Assembly: GCA_022711655.1 (NCBI GenBank)
Contig: JAKLEM010000009.1
Location: 1-57,462, forward strand
DNA from: Candidatus Auribacterota bacterium
GTDB lineage: Bacteria; Auribacterota; Ancaeobacteria; Ancaeobacterales; Ancaeobacteraceae
Direction of reading: 5' to 3'
DNA length: 57,462 bases
Below, one piece after another: positions 24,345-34,358 of the stretch. Below the pieces are notes generated by a model that saw only the letters and a list, made by a program, of their open reading frames with translations, was not told where the DNA came from and ran no database searches. Position 1 is the first letter of the stretch; every line of letters begins with the position of its first letter. The translations under genes were made by a program, and so were the position numbers.

Positions 24345-26009
24345 GTGTTTTCGCCGAAACTGGTGACGTGCCTTAAGGATTACTCGAAGGAGAAGTTCGT
24401 TAAAGATTGTATCGCGGGATTCATTGTCGGGGTGGTCGCGATCCCACTGGCTATCGCATTTGCGATTGCATCAGGAGTTTCCCCTGACAAAGGCCTTTTT
24501 ACGGCGATCATCGCCGGTCTCCTTATATCCGTGCTTGGCGGGAGCCGGGTGCAGGTCGGCGGGCCGACAGGCGCTTTCGTGGTCATTGTCTATGGGGTGG
24601 TGCAGAAACACGGGGTCGACGGGCTAATTATCGCCACATTGATGGCAGGCATCCTCCTGGTGGTCATGGGGGCCGCTAAGCTCGGCACCGCTATCAAGTT
24701 CATTCCGCACTCGGTGATCGTCGGGTTCACCAGCGGGATCGCGGTGATCATCTTTTCATCCCAGGTGAAGGATTTTCTGGGTTTGAGTATCGACAAGGTG
24801 CCTGCGGAGTTCGTGGGGAAATGGCACGTTTTCTTTCAGCATCTCGGCACGGTTAATTATGCCGCATTGATCCTGGGCCTTGTCACAGTCTGTATTATTG
24901 CCATGACCCCCAGGTTCTCAAAGCGTGTGCCGGGCGCTCTTGTTGCCCTTGTTTCCGTCACAGCGCTTGCGGCATTCTTTCATCTGCCTGTCGAGACGAT
25001 CGGCAGCCGTTTTGGGGCATTGCCTCACGGCCTGCCTGTGCCGCATTTCCCTGTGTTAAGTTTTTCAAGGATACGGGAACTCTTTCAGCCTGCTGTGACG
25101 ATCGCGCTCTTAGGCGCCATTGAGTCGCTGCTGTCCGCCGTTGTCGCGGACGGCATGATCGGCGCCCGGCATCGTCCCAATACCGAGCTTATCGGTCAGG
25201 GGATAGCGAATATCGGCTCGGCGCTTTTTGGCGGCATGCCCGCAACGGGGGCCATCGCCAGGACTGTCACCAATATCAAGAATGGGGGCAGAACGCCTAT
25301 CGCCGGCATCGTTCATGCGGTCACGGTCCTCCTTATCATGCTCTTTTTCGGGGCCTGGATCAAATTCGTGCCTTTGGCCTGTCTGGCGGGCATCCTGGTC
25401 GTGGTTGCATACTATATGAGCGAATGGCGGTCTTTCCGGGAGCTGCTCAAGGGGTCTTCCGGCGGAAAGATCGTCCTGGTCATGACGTTCCTTCTGACGG
25501 TTTTTGTCGACCTGAACGTCGCGATCGAGGTCGGAGTTATTCTTGCGACCTTTATCTTTATGAAACGTATGTCCGATGTGACAGAAGTCAAGGTTTTTGC
25601 CAGAGAATACGCAGAAGACGAGAAAATGGAGAAAGGGGAAGATCGCCCGTTAGCGGCATTTGCGCTCCCCCCTAGGGTCGAGGTGTACGAAGTCAACGGC
25701 CCCCTGTTTTTCGGGGCCGCCAACAGTTTTGATGAGGCTGAGCGGCAGGCGCATGAGAAGCCAAAAGTGCGGATCCTGCGGTTCCAGGATGTGCCCTTGA
25801 TCGACTCGACTGGCATGCACGCGCTCAAAAGTTTTTATACGAAGAACAAGCGCGAGGGCATTCACCTTGTCATGACCGGCCTGCATGTCCAGCCGCTCAA
25901 CGAAATGGTCAAATCGAAACTATACGAACTGGTCGGCGAGGAGAATGTCTTCGGCAGCATGAAAGAGTCGATCGCCCGGGCGGAAACATTATTGAAAGAA
26001 ATGAAATGA
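24345..26009 (+). CDS. SulP family anion transporter with STAS domain
   Basis: A 554-residue SLC26/SulP transporter. About 14 membrane segments in the first 410 residues carry the N-terminal signature AGFIVGVVAIPLAIAFAIASGV, followed by GGSRVQVGGPTGAF. A cytoplasmic STAS domain (about 440-554) contains PLIDSTGMHALKSF around residue 486. Members move sulfate, bicarbonate or other anions, often with H+ or Na+. The GTG start has AGGAG at 24331. It is the first gene of an operon encoding a proton-pumping-type complex, so bicarbonate or another anion coupled to that complex is plausible; the substrate is not decided by sequence. Confidence 0.9.
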   Translation: MFSPKLVTCLKDYSKEKFVKDCIAGFIVGVVAIPLAIAFAIASGVSPDKGLFTAIIAGLLISVLGGSRVQVGGPTGAFVVIVYGVVQKHGVDGLIIATLMAGILLVVMGAAKLGTAIKFIPHSVIVGFTSGIAVIIFSSQVKDFLGLSIDKVPAEFVGKWHVFFQHLGTVNYAALILGLVTVCIIAMTPRFSKRVPGALVALVSVTALAAFFHLPVETIGSRFGALPHGLPVPHFPVLSFSRIRELFQPAVTIALLGAIESLLSAVVADGMIGARHRPNTELIGQGIANIGSALFGGMPATGAIARTVTNIKNGGRTPIAGIVHAVTVLLIMLFFGAWIKFVPLACLAGILVVVAYYMSEWRSFRELLKGSSGGKIVLVMTFLLTVFVDLNVAIEVGVILATFIFMKRMSDVTEVKVFAREYAEDEKMEKGEDRPLAAFALPPRVEVYEVNGPLFFGAANSFDEAERQAHEKPKVRILRFQDVPLIDSTGMHALKSFYTKNKREGIHLVMTGLHVQPLNEMVKSKLYELVGEENVFGSMKESIARAETLLKEMK

Positions 26010-26040: not shown

Positions 26041-26376
26041 ATGGAAAAGATAGACGACATGGTGTTCAAGATCAAAGCGGATTTCCTGAAAGCCCTGGCG
26101 CATCCTGCCCGTCTTCAGGTGATTGAGTACCTCAAGGACGGAGAAGCCAGCGTGGGAGCGCTTGTGCAGGCGCTCGGGATCGAGCAGTCAAGTCTGTCGC
26201 GGCATTTGGCCACCCTGCGGAATCTCGGGGTCCTGTCGGCGCGACAGGAAAAGACGAACGTGTATTACAACTTGCAGGACCATGATATCTTCAAAGTGCT
26301 GCGGCCGATCGCGGAGCTGCTCCGGAAAAAATTACGGAGAAGCGAGAAGATCCTTGAGCGCCTCGGCGAAGATTAA
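26041..26376 (+). CDS. ArsR family transcriptional regulator
   Basis: A 111-residue winged-helix protein. ADFLKALAHPARLQVIEYLKDG and the recognition region VGALVQALGIEQSSLSRHLATLRNLGVL are typical ArsR; the wing is SARQEKTNVYYNL. It contains no cysteine at all, so the classical As/Cd thiol site is absent and it should sense something else, or act through the neighbouring EIIA-type protein. Probably binds the palindrome at 24237-24254. Lies 31 bases after SulP. Confidence 0.9.
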   Translation: MEKIDDMVFKIKADFLKALAHPARLQVIEYLKDGEASVGALVQALGIEQSSLSRHLATLRNLGVLSARQEKTNVYYNLQDHDIFKVLRPIAELLRKKLRRSEKILERLGED

Positions 26377-26396: not shown

Positions 26397-27083
26397 ATGC
26401 AGCTGACTTTTCGCGAAATAGAGAAGGCCTTTGAGATCGGAGAGAAAACGCTCTACCAGTGGCTCAATGACCGGGGAATGCCGGCGGTCAAGGCCAACGG
26501 ACAGTATTATTTTAATTCCGTTGAGGTCCTGGAGTGGGCCCTTAAGTTAAAGATCCCCCTGACGCTCGGGGCCTTGAAGCTCTGCGAAAAGAACCGCTCG
26601 GGCCGGGACATCCTGACCCCGGCGCTGATCCGCGGCGGGGTCCATTTCGGGATCAAAGGGAAGCGCCGCGAGGAGATATTCGGGGAAGTCCTGGGCCTGT
26701 TGCCGATCCCGGGCCATATCGACCGGTCTTCTCTAAAAGAGATGCTTATTTCCCGCGAGCAGTCCGGCACGACCGGCATCGGAGACGGGATCGCCATCCC
26801 GCATGTCAAAAGCCCCGTGATATTCGCCGGCCTCGAACCCGTGGCAGGGCTTTTCTTCCTGGAAGCGCCGGCCGATTTTTCCGCCCCTGACGGGGAACCG
26901 GTCCATACGCTGTTCGTGATATTGTCCGGCTCCTTCAAGGGACATTTGTCGCTCCTTTCGCGGCTGGCCTATGGCCTTCAGGACGAAAGCGTCAAATCGG
27001 CCCTGGGCCGCCGCGCGAGCGCCGAAGAGATCCTCGCGACTTTCCAGGTCGTGGAAGCGAAGACCGTGCGGGCCGCTGAGTAA
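26397..27083 (+). CDS. helix-turn-helix protein fused to PTS EIIA (PtsN-like) domain
   Basis: A 228-residue protein. Residues 1-65 look like an excisionase/MerR-type HTH (FREIEKAFEIGEKTLYQWLNDRGMPAVKANGQYYFNS). Residues 75-220 match the fructose/nitrogen-type EIIA domain, with TGIGDGIAIPHVKS carrying the phospho-His at 136 and a downstream VHTLFVILSGSFKGHLSLLSRLAY. No EIIB or EIIC gene is nearby, so it would be a regulatory phosphoacceptor, not a sugar importer part. It may report phosphotransferase state to this operon. Starts 21 bases after arsR. Confidence 0.85.
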   Translation: MQLTFREIEKAFEIGEKTLYQWLNDRGMPAVKANGQYYFNSVEVLEWALKLKIPLTLGALKLCEKNRSGRDILTPALIRGGVHFGIKGKRREEIFGEVLGLLPIPGHIDRSSLKEMLISREQSGTTGIGDGIAIPHVKSPVIFAGLEPVAGLFFLEAPADFSAPDGEPVHTLFVILSGSFKGHLSLLSRLAYGLQDESVKSALGRRASAEEILATFQVVEAKTVRAAE

Positions 27084-27099: not shown

Positions 27100-28962
27100 A
27101 TGGATAAGATACTCTTTGGATCCTGGCCGGTCCCGTTCGGCGAGTTCTCGCTTAAGCTCGACCCCCTGAGCCTCGTCTTCCTTATCGCGGTCACGATCCT
27201 CGCGGTATGCGCCGGGGCCTACGGCTTCGGTTACATGCGCCCCTATCAAGGGAAAAAACCGCTGGGGGTTCATGCCTTCTTCTATCTTCTCCTTGCCCTC
27301 GTCCTTGTCCTGATCGTCACCGCCAATAACGTGATCCTTTTCCTGAGCGCATGGGAGCTTATGACCATCTCCACGTTCTTCCTGATCATTTTCAATGATG
27401 AACAGCCTCCGGTGCGTAAAGCCGGGTTTATTTACTTGATCGCGTCTCACTGCGCGACATTCTTTCTTTTTCTGATGTTCTTCCTGATGTCTCGCGCCGC
27501 CGGTTCGATGGCCTTTGATGTGATGGCCCGCACCACGTTCCCGCCGCTGCTCGCGGGGACGATCTTTCTCCTGTCTCTCGCCGGTTTCGGGGTCAAGGCG
27601 GGTTTTTTTCCGGTGCATGTCTGGCTGCCCCACGCCCACCCGGCCTCGCCCTCGCACATCTCGGCTCTCTTGTCGGGGATCGCGATCAAGATGGGGGTCT
27701 ACGGGATCTGCCGCGTGTTGTGTATCATGAAGGTTTTACCTGTCTGGTGCGGGTACGTCCTTTTGATGATCGGCGTTGTCTCCGGCATTATGGGCGTTCT
27801 CTACGCCCTCGGGCAGCACGAGCTGAAAAAGTTATTGGCCTATCACAGCATTGAAAATATCGGCATCATCACCCTCGGGCTTGGCGCGGGGCTCCTGGGG
27901 ATGAGCTATCAGGCCCCCTTTCTCGCGGTCCTCGGGTTCGGCGGAGGGCTCCTACATGTCCTAAACCACTCGCTGTTCAAAAGCCTCCTTTTCCTGGGAG
28001 CGGGTTCTGTCATTCAGGAGACGCATACCGGCGAGATGGATCATATGGGAGGCCTGGCGAAGGCCCTGCCGCTCACCGGCGTTCTTTTTCTGGTCGGGGC
28101 GCTCTCGATCTGCGGCCTGCCGCTTTTTAACGGGTTCATCAGCGAATTTATCATCTATTTCGGGCTCTTTCAGGGGCTTCTCGGGCTCCCGGTGCACGGG
28201 GTGATCATCTGTGCGCTTGGGATCCTGTCGCTGGGATTGATGGGCGCCCTTGCATCGGCCTGTTTCTGCAAAGTCTACGGGACAGTTTTTTTGGGCAAGC
28301 CTCGCGCCGGATCCTCGCACTCGCCTGAGGGGATGCCCGAAAGGCCGACCGCGCAGGAAGGGGTGTGCCGCGAGGGGACATCAAAATGGATGCTCGTTCC
28401 CATGGCGGCCCTGGCGGCGGCCTGCGTCTTGATCGGGCTTGTCCCCCGCACCGTGACCGGCCTGACTTTTCTTGGCGCGGCCTGCATGGCGCACGTTGAC
28501 CTCGCAACGATACAGACCGAGCAGGTCCTCGTGCCCTTGACGATGGTGATCAGGGTGGCATTTCTGTTCCTCGCGCTCATCTGCGTATTGATCACGGTCC
28601 GCCGGCTTCTTTTGGGAAGAGCGTCTGTGCCGATCCGGGAAACATGGGGCTGCGGTTTTGCGGGGGTTTCTTCGAGGTTCCAATACACATCCTCCTCTTT
28701 TGCCCGGCTGATCGTCGAATTGATGAAAACGGTGCTGTTGTTCCGGCGCCATGGGGGGCAGGTCACCGGCGCCTTCCCGGAGAAGACACGCATGGATTCT
28801 TCAGTCCACGACGCCTCGGAAGAGATGGCGTACCGGCCCGGCCTTGACTTCTTGAACGATGTTTCAAAAAAACTCGGCCATGGCCGTATCCGTCACACCC
28901 AGGTCTATTTAATGTATATTCTCCTGTTCCTGATATTTCTGCTGGTTTGGAAAATGAAGTAG
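27100..28962 (+). CDS. HyfB/NuoL-like proton-translocating subunit
   Basis: A 620-residue antiporter-like membrane subunit (Proton_antipo_M family). Signature stretches are VILFLSAWELMTISTFFLIIF, the conserved Lys region GFGVKAGFFPVHVWLPHAHPASPSHISALLSG and KKLLAYHSIENIGIITLGLG. These Lys/Glu residues form the proton path in complex I and hydrogenase-4. Length and order match HyfB-type proteins. A soluble loop with several Pro/Glu residues (about 400-425) interrupts the late helices. First structural gene of the complex. Confidence 0.9.
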   Translation: MDKILFGSWPVPFGEFSLKLDPLSLVFLIAVTILAVCAGAYGFGYMRPYQGKKPLGVHAFFYLLLALVLVLIVTANNVILFLSAWELMTISTFFLIIFNDEQPPVRKAGFIYLIASHCATFFLFLMFFLMSRAAGSMAFDVMARTTFPPLLAGTIFLLSLAGFGVKAGFFPVHVWLPHAHPASPSHISALLSGIAIKMGVYGICRVLCIMKVLPVWCGYVLLMIGVVSGIMGVLYALGQHELKKLLAYHSIENIGIITLGLGAGLLGMSYQAPFLAVLGFGGGLLHVLNHSLFKSLLFLGAGSVIQETHTGEMDHMGGLAKALPLTGVLFLVGALSICGLPLFNGFISEFIIYFGLFQGLLGLPVHGVIICALGILSLGLMGALASACFCKVYGTVFLGKPRAGSSHSPEGMPERPTAQEGVCREGTSKWMLVPMAALAAACVLIGLVPRTVTGLTFLGAACMAHVDLATIQTEQVLVPLTMVIRVAFLFLALICVLITVRRLLLGRASVPIRETWGCGFAGVSSRFQYTSSSFARLIVELMKTVLLFRRHGGQVTGAFPEKTRMDSSVHDASEEMAYRPGLDFLNDVSKKLGHGRIRHTQVYLMYILLFLIFLLVWKMK

Positions 28963-28980
28963 CGCGAAAAGAGGCGGCCC

Positions 28981-29916
28981 GTGAGTTCTTTGCTCAACGT
29001 GACATTTCCCGTTTTGGCCCATTGGATGATCGTTTGTCTGCTTTCGCCGTTCTTTCTCGGCGTGATCGCCAGGGTCAAAGCGTTCTTTTCCGGAAAAGCG
29101 GGGCCGCCGGTTTTGCAACCGTATTTCGACCTGGCGAGGCTTTTCCGCAAGAAGTGCGTCTACAGTTCTACCGCGACATGGGTATTCCGCGCGGCCCCGG
29201 TGATCATCCTTGCCGCCATGATGGCCTTGTCCCTGCTGGTCCCGTTCGGTATATGCAAGGCGCCGGTGCAATTCTCGGGCGATATCCTGCTGGCGGTCTA
29301 TCTCCTGGCCCTGGGCAGGTTCTTCATGATCCTGGCCGCCCTGGATACGGGGTCCAGTTTCGAAGGAATGGGTGCCAGCCGCGAAGCGTTCTTCTCGTGT
29401 TTGTCGGAACTGGCGCTGTTCATGAATTTCATCACGCTCGCGCTGCTTACCAGGAGCATTTCGCTCGCCCGGATGATCGGGGCGGATGTTCCGATAGTCT
29501 GGGGCGGCATGGAGCCGACGCTGCTTCTGGCCGTGGCGAGCCTCTTCATCGTGCTTCTGGCTGAGAACCGCCGGATCCCGGTGGATGATCCGGAGACACA
29601 CCTGGAGCTGACCATGATCCATGAGGTGATGATCCTCGACCATAGCGGCGTCGACCTGGCCTATTTACTGTATGCATCGGCTCTGAAATTATTTATATTT
29701 TTCGGCATACTGGTTTCCATCATCGTTCCGGTGCGGACCGGATATCCGGTGACGGATACGGCGATCTTTCTCGGCGGGATGCTGGGGCTGGCGGCCCTTG
29801 TCGGGATCGTGGAGTCCTCGATGGCGCGCCTTCGCCTTAATCGCGTCAGGCTCTTGTTGTTGATCTCGTTCGCATTGGCTTTTTTCGGCCTTATCGTAAC
29901 GTTGTGGAGGGCCTAG
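28981..29916 (+). CDS. HyfC/NuoH-like membrane subunit
   Basis: A 311-residue membrane protein of the complex I ND1/HycD family, which anchors the peripheral arm and forms part of the quinone-like cavity. GPPVLQPYFDLARLFRKK near the start and ENRRIPVDDPETHLELTMIHEVMILDHSG are diagnostic. Starts with GTG 18 bases after the HyfB-like gene. About eight helices. Confidence 0.9.
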   Translation: MSSLLNVTFPVLAHWMIVCLLSPFFLGVIARVKAFFSGKAGPPVLQPYFDLARLFRKKCVYSSTATWVFRAAPVIILAAMMALSLLVPFGICKAPVQFSGDILLAVYLLALGRFFMILAALDTGSSFEGMGASREAFFSCLSELALFMNFITLALLTRSISLARMIGADVPIVWGGMEPTLLLAVASLFIVLLAENRRIPVDDPETHLELTMIHEVMILDHSGVDLAYLLYASALKLFIFFGILVSIIVPVRTGYPVTDTAIFLGGMLGLAALVGIVESSMARLRLNRVRLLLLISFALAFFGLIVTLWRA

Positions 29917-29920
29917 GCAC

Positions 29921-30574
29921 ATGACGCTCTGGATCGATGTTAGCTGCATACTGGTCGTGTTCCTGGCGCTGTCCGTCCTGGCAACCAACCGTATTGTCGG
30001 GATGATCAAGATCTTTGCGGTGCAGTCTTTTATATTGAGCTTTGTGCCGTTATTCCTGCATGCGGACGCCGTTTCAGGCCGCGACATCACGCTTTCCCTT
30101 GTCACGATGGTGCTCAAGGCGATACTGGTCCCCGCGATACTGTTTTGGCAGATCAGGCACATCTCCATGCGCTCCGAGATCAAGCCCCTTATCGGGCTCG
30201 GGACCTCGATACTTTTCGGGGCGGTGTTGATCGCCGTCGCCTTCTGGGTTTCCCTTTCGTTGAGATTGCCGGGGAAACTGCTTTCGAGCCTGGTCCTGCC
30301 GTGCTCGCTGGCGACGATGCTTCTGGGTTTCATGACCATGGTGACCCGCACGCGCGCCATAACTCAGGTTCTGGGATATATGGTGATCGAGAACGGGATC
30401 TTTCTTTTCGCCCTGTCTCTGTTTGACGCGATGCCGGTGCTCATCGAAATGGGCATCCTTCTGGATATATTTGTCGCGGTCCTTATCATGGCCATCGTGC
30501 TCAATCACATCAATGAAGAATTTGAACGGACCGGTGGCTCCGCGGGCCGGTCTAAAACGGGGGAGACTGTTTGA
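29921..30574 (+). CDS. HyfE-like membrane subunit
   Basis: A 217-residue membrane protein with about six helices, resembling HyfE (a NuoK-related subunit with an N-terminal extension). VLGYMVIENGIFLFALSLFDAMPVLIEMGILLDIFVAVLIM is the diagnostic region, with the conserved Glu residues in the membrane (ENG, IEMG). Its stop overlaps the next start as ATGA. Confidence 0.88.
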   Translation: MTLWIDVSCILVVFLALSVLATNRIVGMIKIFAVQSFILSFVPLFLHADAVSGRDITLSLVTMVLKAILVPAILFWQIRHISMRSEIKPLIGLGTSILFGAVLIAVAFWVSLSLRLPGKLLSSLVLPCSLATMLLGFMTMVTRTRAITQVLGYMVIENGIFLFALSLFDAMPVLIEMGILLDIFVAVLIMAIVLNHINEEFERTGGSAGRSKTGETV

Positions 30575-31983
30575 TGCTGTCATTGTTGATCCTCATCCCG
30601 CTGTTAGGGGCCCTTGCCATGTTGTTGCCGGTAAGGGCCATGTTCAGGGTGTGGTTCTTGTGCGCCGTGTCTTTCACCTATGCCCTGATCGTGGCGTCGT
30701 TTTGGCGGCAATTGCCCGCCGCGGAATGGAACGGCTATCTGGCGCTCGATCCCCTGGGGCTTATCCTGCTTTCGGTGAACGGCCTTCTTTTTCTTCCCGT
30801 GGCTGTTTTTATGATCGGTTATTTTCAGCATGAACGCAGGAATAACCGGATATTTACCGCGTGCTTATTGTTCCTCATGTCCATGATGACGCTGGTCTCG
30901 GCAAGCTACCATATGGGCCTTTTGTGGGTGGCGATCGAGACGACGACGCTCTTCAGCGCGCCTTTGATCAGTTTTCATCATAACCGGGGAACGTTGGAGG
31001 CTACCTGGAGGTATTTGCTGGTCTGCTCCGTGGGGATCGCTCTGGCGCTCATGGGGACGTTCTTCCTTGCGATCGCAGCGCGGGACGTGCATACGCTTCT
31101 TCTGCCGGCGATACTGAACGGGGCGTCTTCGCTCTCCGTCAACTGGTTGAAATTGAGCGTCATCTTCCTGTTCGTGGGTTACGGCTGCAAGATGGGGCTT
31201 GCCCCGATGCACAGCTGGAAGCCGGAAGCCTATGGCCAGGCGACCGGCATGGTGGTGGTCCTCATGGCCGGGGGGTTGACGCAGTGCTCTTTTCTGGCGC
31301 TGATGCGGGTGAGCCAGATCTGTTACAAAACAGGCTTAAGCGGCTTTTACGCTTCCATTCTCCTTGTCACCGGCGTCCTGTCGCTCGTGGTCCCGGCGGT
31401 GCTTCTCCTGGGCGAGAAAAGCATTAAAAGGTCTTTCGCGTATTCTTCCATCGAACATATGGGGATATTGGTGCTGGGGCTTGGCCTGGGCGGGATAGGG
31501 ATCTTCGGCGCCCTGTTCCATATGATCAATAACTCCTTGGCAAAAGTGGTGATGTTCCTCACGGCCGGGTCAGTGGCTCAGAAATACGGGGCTTCTCACG
31601 CCAGCCTTGTCCGCGGGGTCATCCACACCTATCCGGTAACGGGGGTCTTTTTGCTTGTGTCATTATTTGCCGGGACCGGGATGTTCCCTTTCGCAACGTT
31701 CCATAGCGAGCTGCTGATCATCAATGCGGCGATCATTTCAAAGCAGTACGTTTTGTCGGGGCTCGCCATCCTGTGTCTGGCCGTCATTTTTATTGGGATT
31801 GCCAAGGTGGTCCTGGAGTTTGCCTACGGCCAGCCGACGGACCCGGTCCTGGCAAAGAAAGAAAATCTCTTCATGAATATTACTATTGCACTAGCTGCGA
31901 TGGCGCTCCTGTGCCTCGGTGTATGGATGCCGGCGCCCTTGCATAGGGTTCTTCACGATGCGGTGACCCTGATCGGGGCGTAA
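30571..31983 (+). CDS. HyfF/NuoN-like proton-translocating subunit
   Basis: A 470-residue second antiporter-like subunit. LLWVAIETTTLFSAPLISFH, GYGCKMGLAPMHSWKPEAYGQATG and KRSFAYSSIEHMGILVLGLG hold the family Glu, Lys and His positions. Four-base ATGA overlap with the HyfE-like gene indicates coupled synthesis. With the HyfB-like subunit, the complex would have two antiporter-like channels. Confidence 0.9.
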   Translation: MMLSLLILIPLLGALAMLLPVRAMFRVWFLCAVSFTYALIVASFWRQLPAAEWNGYLALDPLGLILLSVNGLLFLPVAVFMIGYFQHERRNNRIFTACLLFLMSMMTLVSASYHMGLLWVAIETTTLFSAPLISFHHNRGTLEATWRYLLVCSVGIALALMGTFFLAIAARDVHTLLLPAILNGASSLSVNWLKLSVIFLFVGYGCKMGLAPMHSWKPEAYGQATGMVVVLMAGGLTQCSFLALMRVSQICYKTGLSGFYASILLVTGVLSLVVPAVLLLGEKSIKRSFAYSSIEHMGILVLGLGLGGIGIFGALFHMINNSLAKVVMFLTAGSVAQKYGASHASLVRGVIHTYPVTGVFLLVSLFAGTGMFPFATFHSELLIINAAIISKQYVLSGLAILCLAVIFIGIAKVVLEFAYGQPTDPVLAKKENLFMNITIALAAMALLCLGVWMPAPLHRVLHDAVTLIGA

Positions 31984-32026
31984 AGAGGGCCGGGCCGGGA
32001 ACCCGGCGCGGAACGGATGAGGGCCT

Positions 32027-33538
32027 ATGGAATTGTTCAATGGCGGCAGTATTGCCTTAAAAGATATTCCGCTCCTGGAGAAAAAAGAATTTCGAGGGGA
32101 AGTGCTGCTCCGCTGCCGCGACGGCGCGCGGCTCGCGAACCTTTTTGGAAGCCCGGACGGCGGCGGAGGCGTCCGCCTGATCGCGATCCTCGGGCAGGAT
32201 GAAGATCCCGAGCTGCAGATACTCGCGACGACGATTTCGGCGGGATCTGCGCGCTATGAGTCTTTGACCGCGGAACTCCTTCAGGCCCATCTTTTCGAAC
32301 GCGAGATCGCGGAGCAGTGGGCGATCGTCCCCGAAGGGCACCCGTGGCTCAAGCCGGTACGGTACCACGCGAATTATCGCGGCGTTCCGGATATATGGAA
32401 AGATATCGGGGAGCAGACGATCCCGGGATCGTATCCTTTCTACGCCGTTGGCGGCGAGGAAGTCCATGAAGTGGGCGTGGGCCCGGTGCATGCCGGGATT
32501 ATCGAGCCAGGGCATTTCCGGTTCCAGTGCCATGGCGAAGAGGTGCTGCACCTGGAGATCCAGTTAGGATACCAGCATCGCGGCATCGAGCCGATGATGT
32601 GCGGGAGCGGCATGAAACGGCAGGCGCTCTTGAGCGAGTCGGTTGCCGGGGATACCTCCGTCGGCCATTCCACGGCGTTCTGTGAAGCGGTGGAATCCCT
32701 TGCGGGCTGCACTGTCCCGATCAAGGCGCAGGCCATCCGCGCGGTAGCGCTGGAGCTGGAGCGGCTGGCGAACCATGTGGGCGACCTGGGCGCCCTGGGG
32801 ATGGACGCCGGCTTCCTGACGACAAGCGCTTATTTCGGCCGTATGCGGGGGGATTACTTGAATCTGTTATTGGAGCTGACGGGAAACCGTTTTGGCAAGG
32901 GCCTGTGCCGGCCGGGGGGCGTCCTTTTTGATATCGAGGACTCGATGGCCGAGGACCTCTGCCGCCGGCTCACGCGTTATAAGAAGGAATTCGAAGAGGT
33001 AAGCGACCTGCTTTTCACCAGCCCGTCGGTCCTTGCCCGTTTTGAAGGGATCGGGACGGTCTCCCTGGAGGCCGCGAAAAGCCTGGGGATGGTGGGTCCT
33101 GCCGCGCGGGCGAGCCAGCTGGAATATGACGTGCGCAGCGATTACAGTTCCGGGATGTGGCAATTTTATCACGTCCCTATTTCTTTGGCCGCATCGGGGG
33201 ATGTCTACGCGCGGGCTTTGGTGCGTCGCCAGGAAGTGATGCGCTCGCTGGAATTGTTGCTGAAGCTTTTACCGTCCCTTCCCAAAGGGGAGATCTGCGC
33301 CTCGCCCGGCCCGCTGAAGCCGGAAACGCTGGCGGTGTCTCTGGTGGAGGGGTGGCGCGGCGAGATCATGCATGCCTGTATCACAGACAGCCATGGCGCG
33401 TTGGCCCGGTACAAGATCAAAGACCCCTCGTTCAACAACTGGTTCGCTCTGACGCTGGCGATGCGCAACCAGGAGATCTCTGATTTTCCCCTGTGCAATA
33501 AGAGTTTTAATCTGTCATATTGCGGGCATGACCTATGA
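32027..33538 (+). CDS. Ehr-type large subunit (HyfG/NuoCD-like), NiFe cysteines lost
   Basis: A 503-residue fusion of a NuoC-like N-terminal part (about 1-130) and a 49-kDa/NiFe large-subunit-like part. True group 4 hydrogenases hold nickel with RxCGxC near the first third and DPCxxC at the C-terminus. Here the first site reads SVAGDTSVGH (205-214, both Cys replaced by Ala and Thr) and the end reads SFNLSYCGHDL (493-503, no CxxC). It therefore cannot bind the NiFe centre in the usual way. This is the mark of energy-converting hydrogenase-related (Ehr) complexes, as named by Marreiros and co-workers. No C-terminal maturation peptide is visible and no maturation gene lies in the window. Confidence 0.85.
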   Translation: MELFNGGSIALKDIPLLEKKEFRGEVLLRCRDGARLANLFGSPDGGGGVRLIAILGQDEDPELQILATTISAGSARYESLTAELLQAHLFEREIAEQWAIVPEGHPWLKPVRYHANYRGVPDIWKDIGEQTIPGSYPFYAVGGEEVHEVGVGPVHAGIIEPGHFRFQCHGEEVLHLEIQLGYQHRGIEPMMCGSGMKRQALLSESVAGDTSVGHSTAFCEAVESLAGCTVPIKAQAIRAVALELERLANHVGDLGALGMDAGFLTTSAYFGRMRGDYLNLLLELTGNRFGKGLCRPGGVLFDIEDSMAEDLCRRLTRYKKEFEEVSDLLFTSPSVLARFEGIGTVSLEAAKSLGMVGPAARASQLEYDVRSDYSSGMWQFYHVPISLAASGDVYARALVRRQEVMRSLELLLKLLPSLPKGEICASPGPLKPETLAVSLVEGWRGEIMHACITDSHGALARYKIKDPSFNNWFALTLAMRNQEISDFPLCNKSFNLSYCGHDL

Positions 33539-33575
33539 AATTTTCCCGTAACCATCAATGGACAGGGATGATGCG

Positions 33576-33597
33576 GCAGGCGCAGGCTTTCGCCTGC
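33576..33597. repeat. hairpin within the Ehr operon
   Basis: GCAGGCG (33576-33582) and CGCCTGC (33591-33597). It lies in the only long gap (142 bases) of an otherwise tightly packed operon and may be a REP-like insertion or an RNA processing/stability site. Confidence 0.45.
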
Positions 33598-33680
33598 GAG
33601 TCAGGACGCGGACTGAAGCTTGCGGCTACCCCTGCTCACCGAATAGTTGCGGGTCCCAGACGTAGGAGCGGGGTGACCGT

Positions 33681-34358
33681 ATGCTGAAGATCTTAATGAC
33701 GCGTTTCAGGCAAGGGTGCCGCACCATGCCGTTCCCCAAGGGCAAACCGCCGGTCCTGCCGGCGCGCTATCGAGGCCGGCCCATCGCCGCCGCACAGGGA
33801 GACAGCGTGGATCTCGGGAGCATAACCTTTGTTCCCGACAGCGGCATCCGGCATTCGGGTGATTTCCGGATGGCGGTATCCGGGCGCGAAGATCTTATCC
33901 TCGCGGGTGACGTGTACGCCCTGGCGCACACGGTGAAGAAAGAGATCCTGAAGATGTTCGGCCGGTCTCTGAAACTTCGACAGGTCTCGGCGGGCGGGTG
34001 CAATGCCTGCGAGGCGGACATCAACGTCCTTAACACGCCCGTATTCGACCTCAGCCGTTTCGGCATCCAGTTCGTTGCCTCTCCGCGCCATGCCGACGGG
34101 ATCGTTGTCACCGGCCCTGTCCCGCGCAATATGAAAGACGCGCTTCTCAGGACCTACGAGGCAGTGCCGGACCCCAAGGTCGTTATTGCGGTCGGCGCCT
34201 GCGCGATCTCCGGAGGGATTTTTGACGCCGGCCCCGAAGATTCCAGAGGGCTGGATACCCTTATCCCCGTGGACCTTTACATCCCCGGCTGTCCGCCTCA
34301 TCCTTTGACCATCCTCGACGGGCTCTTGAGACTGACGGGAAGGATCAAGGTCGTTTGA
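33681..34358 (+). CDS. HyfI/NuoB-like iron-sulfur subunit
   Basis: A 225-residue NuoB-like subunit that would bind one [4Fe-4S] cluster (N2-type) next to the large subunit. The four Cys lie in GGCNACEAD (Cys107, Cys110), VGACAISGG (about Cys173) and PGCPPHP (about Cys202). A N-terminal extension of about 75 residues precedes the conserved core. It is the last gene of the operon; no HyfH/NuoI-type ferredoxin subunit follows. Confidence 0.9.
   Translation: MLKILMTRFRQGCRTMPFPKGKPPVLPARYRGRPIAAAQGDSVDLGSITFVPDSGIRHSGDFRMAVSGREDLILAGDVYALAHTVKKEILKMFGRSLKLRQVSAGGCNACEADINVLNTPVFDLSRFGIQFVASPRHADGIVVTGPVPRNMKDALLRTYEAVPDPKVVIAVGACAISGGIFDAGPEDSRGLDTLIPVDLYIPGCPPHPLTILDGLLRLTGRIKVV

What the first reader, a model, noticed from the sequence alone, without database searches (positions are those of the whole stretch)
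32642..33538. Large subunit has lost both NiFe cysteine motifs
RxCGxC is SVAGDTSVGH (205-214) and DPCxxC is replaced in SFNLSYCGHDL at the C-terminus. The change at both ends, with the rest of the fold kept, points to a selected non-hydrogenase function. AGDTSVGH is also close to the NuoD-type sequence, which fits an intermediate between hydrogenase and complex I. The remaining Cys499 is unusual and could be functional.
Basis: partly seen in the sequence, partly recalled or inferred. Interest (0 to 1): 0.6.

Follow-up and report, generated by a model that had tools for sequence, protein, structure and literature searches.

The report
Ehr complex subunit without nickel site
This gene encodes the large subunit of a membrane complex related to hydrogenases and respiratory complex I; its nickel-binding site has been replaced by a different, strictly conserved, metal-free pocket, which makes it an 'Ehr' protein of a published but uncharacterised kind, and in this lineage the neighbouring subunit has also lost the iron-sulfur clusters that would normally feed it electrons.

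Summary
The 503-aa protein (32027-33538) aligns end to end with E. coli HycE, and all four [NiFe] ligand cysteines are gone: the HycE CxxC pairs correspond to A207/T210 and S497/G500. This is not a private mutation. 100 relatives from many phyla share the replacement motifs and all end at the same residue, where hydrogenases are cut after nickel insertion. That is the published Ehr family (energy-converting hydrogenase-related), so the core finding is known in kind. The L1 loop is closer to hydrogenases than to NuoD. No complex-I quinone residues are present. Cys499 is dispensable (C/A/S in relatives).

New here: the small subunit (33681-34358) carries a ferredoxin domain that has lost every cluster cysteine, a loss shared by an Omnitrophota clade. 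Only one [4Fe-4S] site remains on the predicted wire. In three other lineages that last cluster is gone too. The ion-pump residues of the membrane arm stay conserved and all genes are under purifying selection. An HTH-EIIA (PTS) gene sits directly upstream in 42 of 58 Ehr operons. I conclude a non-hydrogenase, ion-translocating Ehr complex; whether electrons flow through the window's version is open.

The parts
32027..33538 (+). EhrL / HycE-HyfG-like large subunit, 503 aa, NuoC-like N-terminal part fused to NuoD/hydrogenase-like part
32480..32524 (+). beta1-beta2 loop GPVHAGIIEPGHFRF (residues 152-166), near-invariant Ehr hallmark; E160 aligns with the HycE E193 proton donor
   Evidence: role of E193 from PMC9474812
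32639..32668 (+). former RxCGxC loop, now SVAGDTSVGH (205-214): Cys positions are A207 and T210; G208 and D209 each in 99 of 100
33503..33535 (+). former DPCxxC tail, now SFNLSYCGHDL (493-503): Cys positions are S497 and G500; the gene ends where hydrogenases are processed, no C-terminal extension
33681..34358 (+). EhrS / HyfI-HycG-like small subunit, 225 aa; proximal [4Fe-4S] ligands C107, C110, C174, C204 kept
33681..33965 (+). N-terminal ferredoxin-like (NuoI/HyfH-type) domain of EhrS that has lost all cluster cysteines
27100..28962 (+). HyfB/NuoL-like antiporter subunit; E86, K166, K243, H290, K294 conserved in all 68 homologues
28981..29916 (+). HyfC/NuoH-like subunit; acid-rich loop ENRRIPVDDPETHLELTMIHE conserved
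29921..30574 (+). HyfE-like (NuoK-like) subunit; E157 and D182 conserved in all 66
30571..31983 (+). HyfF/NuoN-like antiporter subunit; K207 and K325 conserved in all 79
26397..27083 (+). HTH_17 + PTS EIIA(Ntr)-like protein with the GIAIPH motif, directly upstream of HyfB in 42 of 58 Ehr operon copies; probable regulator
26041..26376 (+). ArsR/SmtB-type regulator gene
24345..26009 (+). SulP-family anion transporter with STAS domain; also upstream of Ehr in the three nearest relatives and in three distant Bacteroidota/Ignavibacteria loci

Best explanation
The protein is the large subunit (EhrL) of an energy-converting-hydrogenase-related (Ehr) complex encoded by 27100-34358. Shown from sequence: all four [NiFe] ligands are replaced, the gene ends without the peptide that is cleaved in nickel maturation, the replacement motifs are family-wide and under purifying selection, and the ion-translocating residues of the four membrane subunits are kept. 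Inferred: the former active-site pocket is now a metal-free site built from the GPVHAGIIEPGHFRF loop, D209, R444 and the NKSFxLSYxGxDL tail. It keeps the hydrogenase-type proton-relay residues (E160, R444, N/D495), and events in it are coupled through the HyfC loop to ion movement in the HyfB/E/F arm. In the window's clade the ferredoxin-like entry domain of the small subunit is a cluster-free relic, so at most one [4Fe-4S] cluster remains. Electrons therefore either enter directly at that cluster from an unidentified partner (about 40%), or do not pass at all and the complex works as a ligand-gated or regulated ion antiporter (about 35%). The remaining 25% is for mechanisms not considered. 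Hydrogenase activity is very unlikely. The confidence given is for the Ehr identity and the non-hydrogenase, ion-translocating reading, not for either electron model.
For: Cys loss and alignment. Fold kept. Family motifs invariant in 56 and 100 sequences. Purifying selection, dN/dS 0.13-0.16 in all six complex genes. All 100 relatives end at the same residue, with no C-terminal extension. HypD not found in 15 of 25 Ehr-bearing genomes. Operon order B-C-E-F-G-I conserved. Membrane-arm Lys/Glu conserved. Ferredoxin relic: relatives with Cys score Fer4 models, the window and L026 do not. The loss is one change on the tree once the NuoD outgroup row is set aside. Ehr in other phyla is described as lacking the ligands and as unlikely to be a hydrogenase (PMC10284858, PMC6349859, PMC12342949, PMC7304191).
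Against: I found no biochemistry for any Ehr complex in the papers read. The electron donor, acceptor and transported ion are unknown. In Geobacter sulfurreducens, Ehr proteins rise on formate and the authors suggested a link to formate dehydrogenase and hydrogen production (PMC7894505). The window genome does hold HypD and other [NiFe] large subunits, so absence of maturation cannot be argued for this genome itself. Proximal-cluster Cys are kept in the window and in the relatives of its clade where they could be read, which argues for some redox or structural use.
Confidence: 0.85

Rival explanations
1. Redox-free Ehr: the peripheral arm is no longer an electron-transfer unit but a ligand-binding or regulatory cap on a Mrp-like ion antiporter, controlled by the EIIA protein and perhaps serving the neighbouring SulP anion transporter. 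(This is one of the two sub-models left open in the best explanation.)
For: Ferredoxin clusters lost in the window clade. The last (proximal) cluster Cys are also lost in the small subunits of two congeneric genomes G058/G115, of Allomeiothermus silvanus and of Mycobacterium branderi. Membrane-arm charges stay conserved. Linked EIIA gene in 42 of 58 operons and SulP in two distant clades.
Against: The proximal Cys set is intact in the window and in the relatives of its clade where it could be read. Most Ehr keep some or all ferredoxin Cys. Neighbouring genes may be only co-regulated.
Confidence: 0.35
2. A complex-I-like quinone reductase or an evolutionary intermediate between hydrogenase and complex I.
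For: Pfam and NCBIfam name it Complex1_49kDa / NuoD-like. Ehr as a whole was published as a missing link (Marreiros 2013, cited in PMC10284858).
Against: The quinone Tyr position of Nqo4 is Gly208 and the loop His is Ile159 (roles from own knowledge). L1 identity is higher to hydrogenases than to NuoD. The full-length best match is HycE, not NuoD. The genome has its own NuoD.
Confidence: 0.1
3. A decaying, non-functional hydrogenase operon.
For: Loss of cofactor ligands in two subunits.
Against: Open frames throughout, dN/dS about 0.13, no non-synonymous change in residues 484-503, and the same motifs in relatives at 40-80% identity from many phyla.
Confidence: 0.01
4. Nickel is still bound through shifted cysteines (C168, C490, C499 and others).
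For: C168 and C490 occur in 93 and 92 of 100 relatives.
Against: No CxxC pair remains. C499 is A or S in 43 of 100. C490 is I or V in 8 and C168 is absent in 7. L1 carries a Cys in 14 relatives only, one each. HypD was not found in many Ehr genomes.
Confidence: 0.02

Closest known systems
[quoted passage not shown] Marreiros et al. 2013; reported in Geobacter, comammox Nitrospira, Margulisbacteria/Melainabacteria, CPR)
   Same: Group-4 hydrogenase-like operon with NuoL/H/N-like membrane subunits and large and small subunits, no [NiFe] ligand Cys
   Different: The window clade also lacks all ferredoxin cluster Cys in the small subunit and sits behind SulP-ArsR-EIIA genes; I saw no mention of these features in the passages of the Ehr papers read
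E. coli formate hydrogenlyase / Hyd-4 (HycE, HyfG; 7z0s)
   Same: Same fold over the whole length (TM 0.88), fused NuoC-like domain, hyf-like subunit set B-C-E-F-G-I
   Different: No NiFe ligands, no C-terminal processing peptide, no linked formate dehydrogenase gene found, ferredoxin part reduced to a cluster-free domain fused to the small subunit
Respiratory complex I (NuoD/Nqo4, NuoB)
   Same: Fold, membrane-arm subunits, metal-free pocket at the same place
   Different: No quinone Tyr/His, hydrogenase-type spacing of small-subunit Cys (CxxC), no N-module genes found nearby
P. furiosus Mbh / MBS (6cfw, 6u8y)
   Same: Homologous large subunit (E 1.4e-39 and 7.3e-21) with Mrp-like membrane parts
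   Different: Archaeal subunit set; Mbh keeps its L1 Cys pair (alignment); MBS ligand status not tested here

Membership tests
Ehr complexes | Homology to group-4 [NiFe] hydrogenase large subunit | tested here: met
Ehr complexes | Absence of the [NiFe] ligand Cys (CxxC motifs) | tested here: met
   definition as in PMC10284858, PMC6349859
Ehr complexes | Mrp/complex-I-like membrane subunits in one operon with large and small subunits | tested here: met
Ehr complexes | Clusters with named Ehr reference sequences (Geobacter, Nitrospira) in a tree | not tested
   named reference sequences not fetched; relatives from Spirochaetes, Lentisphaerae and Melainabacteria, groups that PMC6349859 lists together in its Ehr tree, are in the tree
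[NiFe] hydrogenase, group 4 | Two CxxC motifs ligating Ni-Fe | tested here: not met
[NiFe] hydrogenase, group 4 | Hyp maturation and C-terminal cleavage | tested here: inconclusive
   no C-terminal extension; HypD present in this genome but not found in 15 of 25 Ehr genomes
Complex I (NuoD) | Quinone-site Tyr and loop His | tested here: not met
   alignment to Nqo4: Gly208 and Ile159
Complex I (NuoD) | NADH module (NuoE/F/G) in the operon | tested here: not met
   the genes scanned between 21115 and 37341 include none
MBS (sulfane sulfur reductase) | MBS-type ligand set and sulfur reduction | not testable with these tools
   needs biochemistry

The most novel reading that the evidence does not exclude
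Ehr complexes of this clade, and more clearly those whose small subunit has lost even the last cluster, are redox-free members of the complex I superfamily: the old catalytic pocket binds a non-redox ligand and gates ion transport, under control of a PTS EIIA-type protein.
Probability: 0.25. Interest if true: 0.8.

Novelty: new variant of a known kind. Interest (0 to 1): 0.45.

Why it matters
Ehr complexes are widespread and none has a known function in the papers found. Lineages that lose the NiFe site, then the ferredoxin clusters, and elsewhere the last cluster, while keeping the pump residues, are natural experiments on whether the superfamily's membrane arm can be driven or gated without electron transfer. 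They make the question of how the pocket is coupled to the membrane arm in complex I testable in a simpler relative.

Tried and rejected
Shifted Cys ligands: rejected by conservation counts. NuoD-like L1: rejected by direct comparison. Functional Cys499: rejected, C/A/S in relatives. Pseudogene: rejected by dN/dS. A linked formate dehydrogenase, proposed for Margulisbacteria (PMC6349859): among gene clusters recurring around the Ehr operons none but the Ehr genes, EIIA, SulP and ArsR was identified, but not every recurrent cluster was annotated, so this is weak. A literature search for an EIIA-Ehr link drowned in unrelated uses of 'EHR' and 'PTS', so the absence of reports is not shown. A Pfam scan of an unselected window stretch failed because of stop codons. 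The first attempt to find the G058/G115 small subunit by motif printed nothing and was repeated with another motif.

Full report
What was checked. The ORF 32027-33538 (+) encodes 503 aa. It is the fifth gene of a six-gene run with a hyf-like order: HyfB 27100-28962, HyfC 28981-29916, HyfE 29921-30574, HyfF 30571-31983, HyfG 32027-33538, HyfI 33681-34358. phmmer aligns the large subunit with HycE of E. coli formate hydrogenlyase (residues 69-498, E 2e-48), and less well with MbhL and Nqo4. At L1, DRVCGICGFAHS of HycE stands over ESVAGDTSVGHS. At the C-terminus SLDPCY stands over SFNLSY, and continued without gaps SLDPCYSCTDR over SFNLSYCGHDL. All four ligand positions are therefore changed, to A207, T210, S497 and G500.

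How general it is. A scan of 84,980 species genomes found 248 encoding stretches and kept the best 80. The best hits are Omnitrophota (82, 72, 67% identity), so the window probably comes from an Omnitrophota bacterium. Others are Elusimicrobia, Spirochaetes, Bacteroidota/Ignavibacteria, Lentisphaerae, Verrucomicrobia and Melainabacteria (Gastranaerophilales). Annotated plasmids add Variovorax, Allomeiothermus, Methylocalor and Cupriavidus. In a 100-sequence alignment G208 and D209 are each present in 99; I159, E160, R444, N491, K492, S493, S497, Y498, G500, D502 and L503 in all 100; and every sequence ends at L503. The replacement is a family signature, not decay. Between the window and its nearest relative dN/dS is 0.13 for the large subunit, and residues 484-503 have no non-synonymous difference.

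What it is. This matches Ehr as described in the literature: related to group-4 hydrogenases, lacking the metal-binding motifs, unlikely to be hydrogenases, function unknown (PMC10284858; PMC6349859; PMC12342949; PMC7304191; PMC10432482). The idea of a missing link between hydrogenase and complex I is in Marreiros et al. 2013 (cited in PMC10284858). Named Geobacter and Nitrospira references were not put in my tree, so membership rests on the defining features and the shared taxa.

L1 is not NuoD-like. Over 15 residues the window shares 6 with HycE and 2-3 with NuoD proteins, and the Tyr of the complex I quinone site is Gly208 (role from own knowledge). Cys499 is C in 57, A in 26 and S in 17 relatives, so it cannot be required. 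No set of conserved Cys could replace the ligands.

The pocket. AlphaFold2 keeps the fold (pLDDT 89.5; TM 0.88 to HycE). The two least certain stretches, 153-161 and 499-503, are among the most conserved, which fits sites that need a partner or ligand (inference). From PMC9474812, HycE uses E193 on the beta1-beta2 loop and canopy residues R478 and D529. By the alignment these correspond to E160 (invariant), R444 (invariant) and N495 (N in 77, D in 22). So the proton-relay residues of a hydrogenase are kept while the metal ligands are gone.

Maturation. HypD was found in 10 of 25 Ehr-bearing genomes and not found in 15, including four at 92-98% completeness. The window's own genome has HypD and other [NiFe] large subunits, so this argument holds for the family and not for this genome.

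The small subunit. The proximal cluster Cys C107, C110, C174 and C204 are present. In front of them lies a domain that in many relatives is a ferredoxin with 4-9 Cys and scores Fer4 models. In the window it aligns through RGRP, VDLGxITF and MAVSxREDLIL but has no Cys in the cluster region. The Omnitrophota relatives in a 16-row group (SH-aLRT 92) share this where their small subunit could be read, some with one to three leftover Cys. The parsimony count gave 2 changes, one of which I attribute to the NuoD outgroup row, which has no such domain and was labelled 'lost'. The relic domain is still under purifying selection (dN 0.174, dS 1.13). Partial losses occur elsewhere (Bacteroidota, Gastranaerophilales).

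Loss of the last cluster. Two congeneric genomes (G058, G115; large subunits 90% identical) have small subunits without any of the four proximal Cys, although they keep ferredoxin Cys. Allomeiothermus silvanus and Mycobacterium branderi also lack them. The M. branderi large subunit is a more distant type with a different C-terminal tail. These cases make a redox-free function possible for some members.

Membrane arm and neighbours. The key Lys, Glu and His residues of HyfB, HyfC, HyfE and HyfF are conserved over 66-79 sequences, many of them in all. An HTH-EIIA gene with the GIAIPH motif lies directly upstream of HyfB in 42 of 58 operon copies; it is missing in Elusimicrobia, in Gastranaerophilales and related Melainabacteria, and in second tandem copies. 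SulP lies upstream in the window, L024-L026 and the distant L084, L093 and L099. I cannot claim that the EIIA link is unreported.

Verdict. The window adds a variant with a cluster-free entry domain. Mechanism beyond 'not a hydrogenase, ion-translocating membrane arm kept' is inference, with redox and redox-free models left at about 40% and 35%.

Noticed in passing
L112/L113 small subunits (G058, G115); L105:8260-9132; L114:7848-8642: Ehr-type small subunits without any of the four proximal [4Fe-4S] Cys, in a small candidate phylum, Deinococcota and Actinomycetota.
   Followed up: partly
26397-27083 and 43 related loci: HTH_17 + PTS EIIA gene fixed upstream of Ehr operons across several phyla, with the conserved PH motif.
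   Followed up: partly
L032:12116-17103; L034:12119-17110: A second membrane arm (B-C-E-F) follows the Ehr operon; in L034 it is followed by Ppx/GppA and polyphosphate kinase genes, with no second large or small subunit seen.
   Followed up: partly
L031:1-11874: Two Ehr operons in tandem, one with ferredoxin Cys (5) and one whose small subunit (cut by the locus end) has only two Cys there.
   Followed up: no
26041-26376; L105:461-799: ArsR-type regulator genes upstream of Ehr in the window and in A. silvanus; the M. tuberculosis hyc-like operon rv0082-rv0087 is reported to be regulated by rv0081 (PMC6901956).
   Followed up: no
14 loci, mostly Gastranaerophilales (e.g. L078, L080, L103): The first L1 cysteine survives (ESVCGDS) in some Ehr large subunits.
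   Followed up: no
27100-28962: Window HyfB matches the hydrogenase 4 subunit B model only from position 67, so it appears to lack an N-terminal stretch of about 60 residues.
   Followed up: no
L114:12060-13139; L115:552-920: DUF190 genes near the more distant Ehr-type operons of Mycobacterium branderi and Burkholderia multivorans.
   Followed up: no
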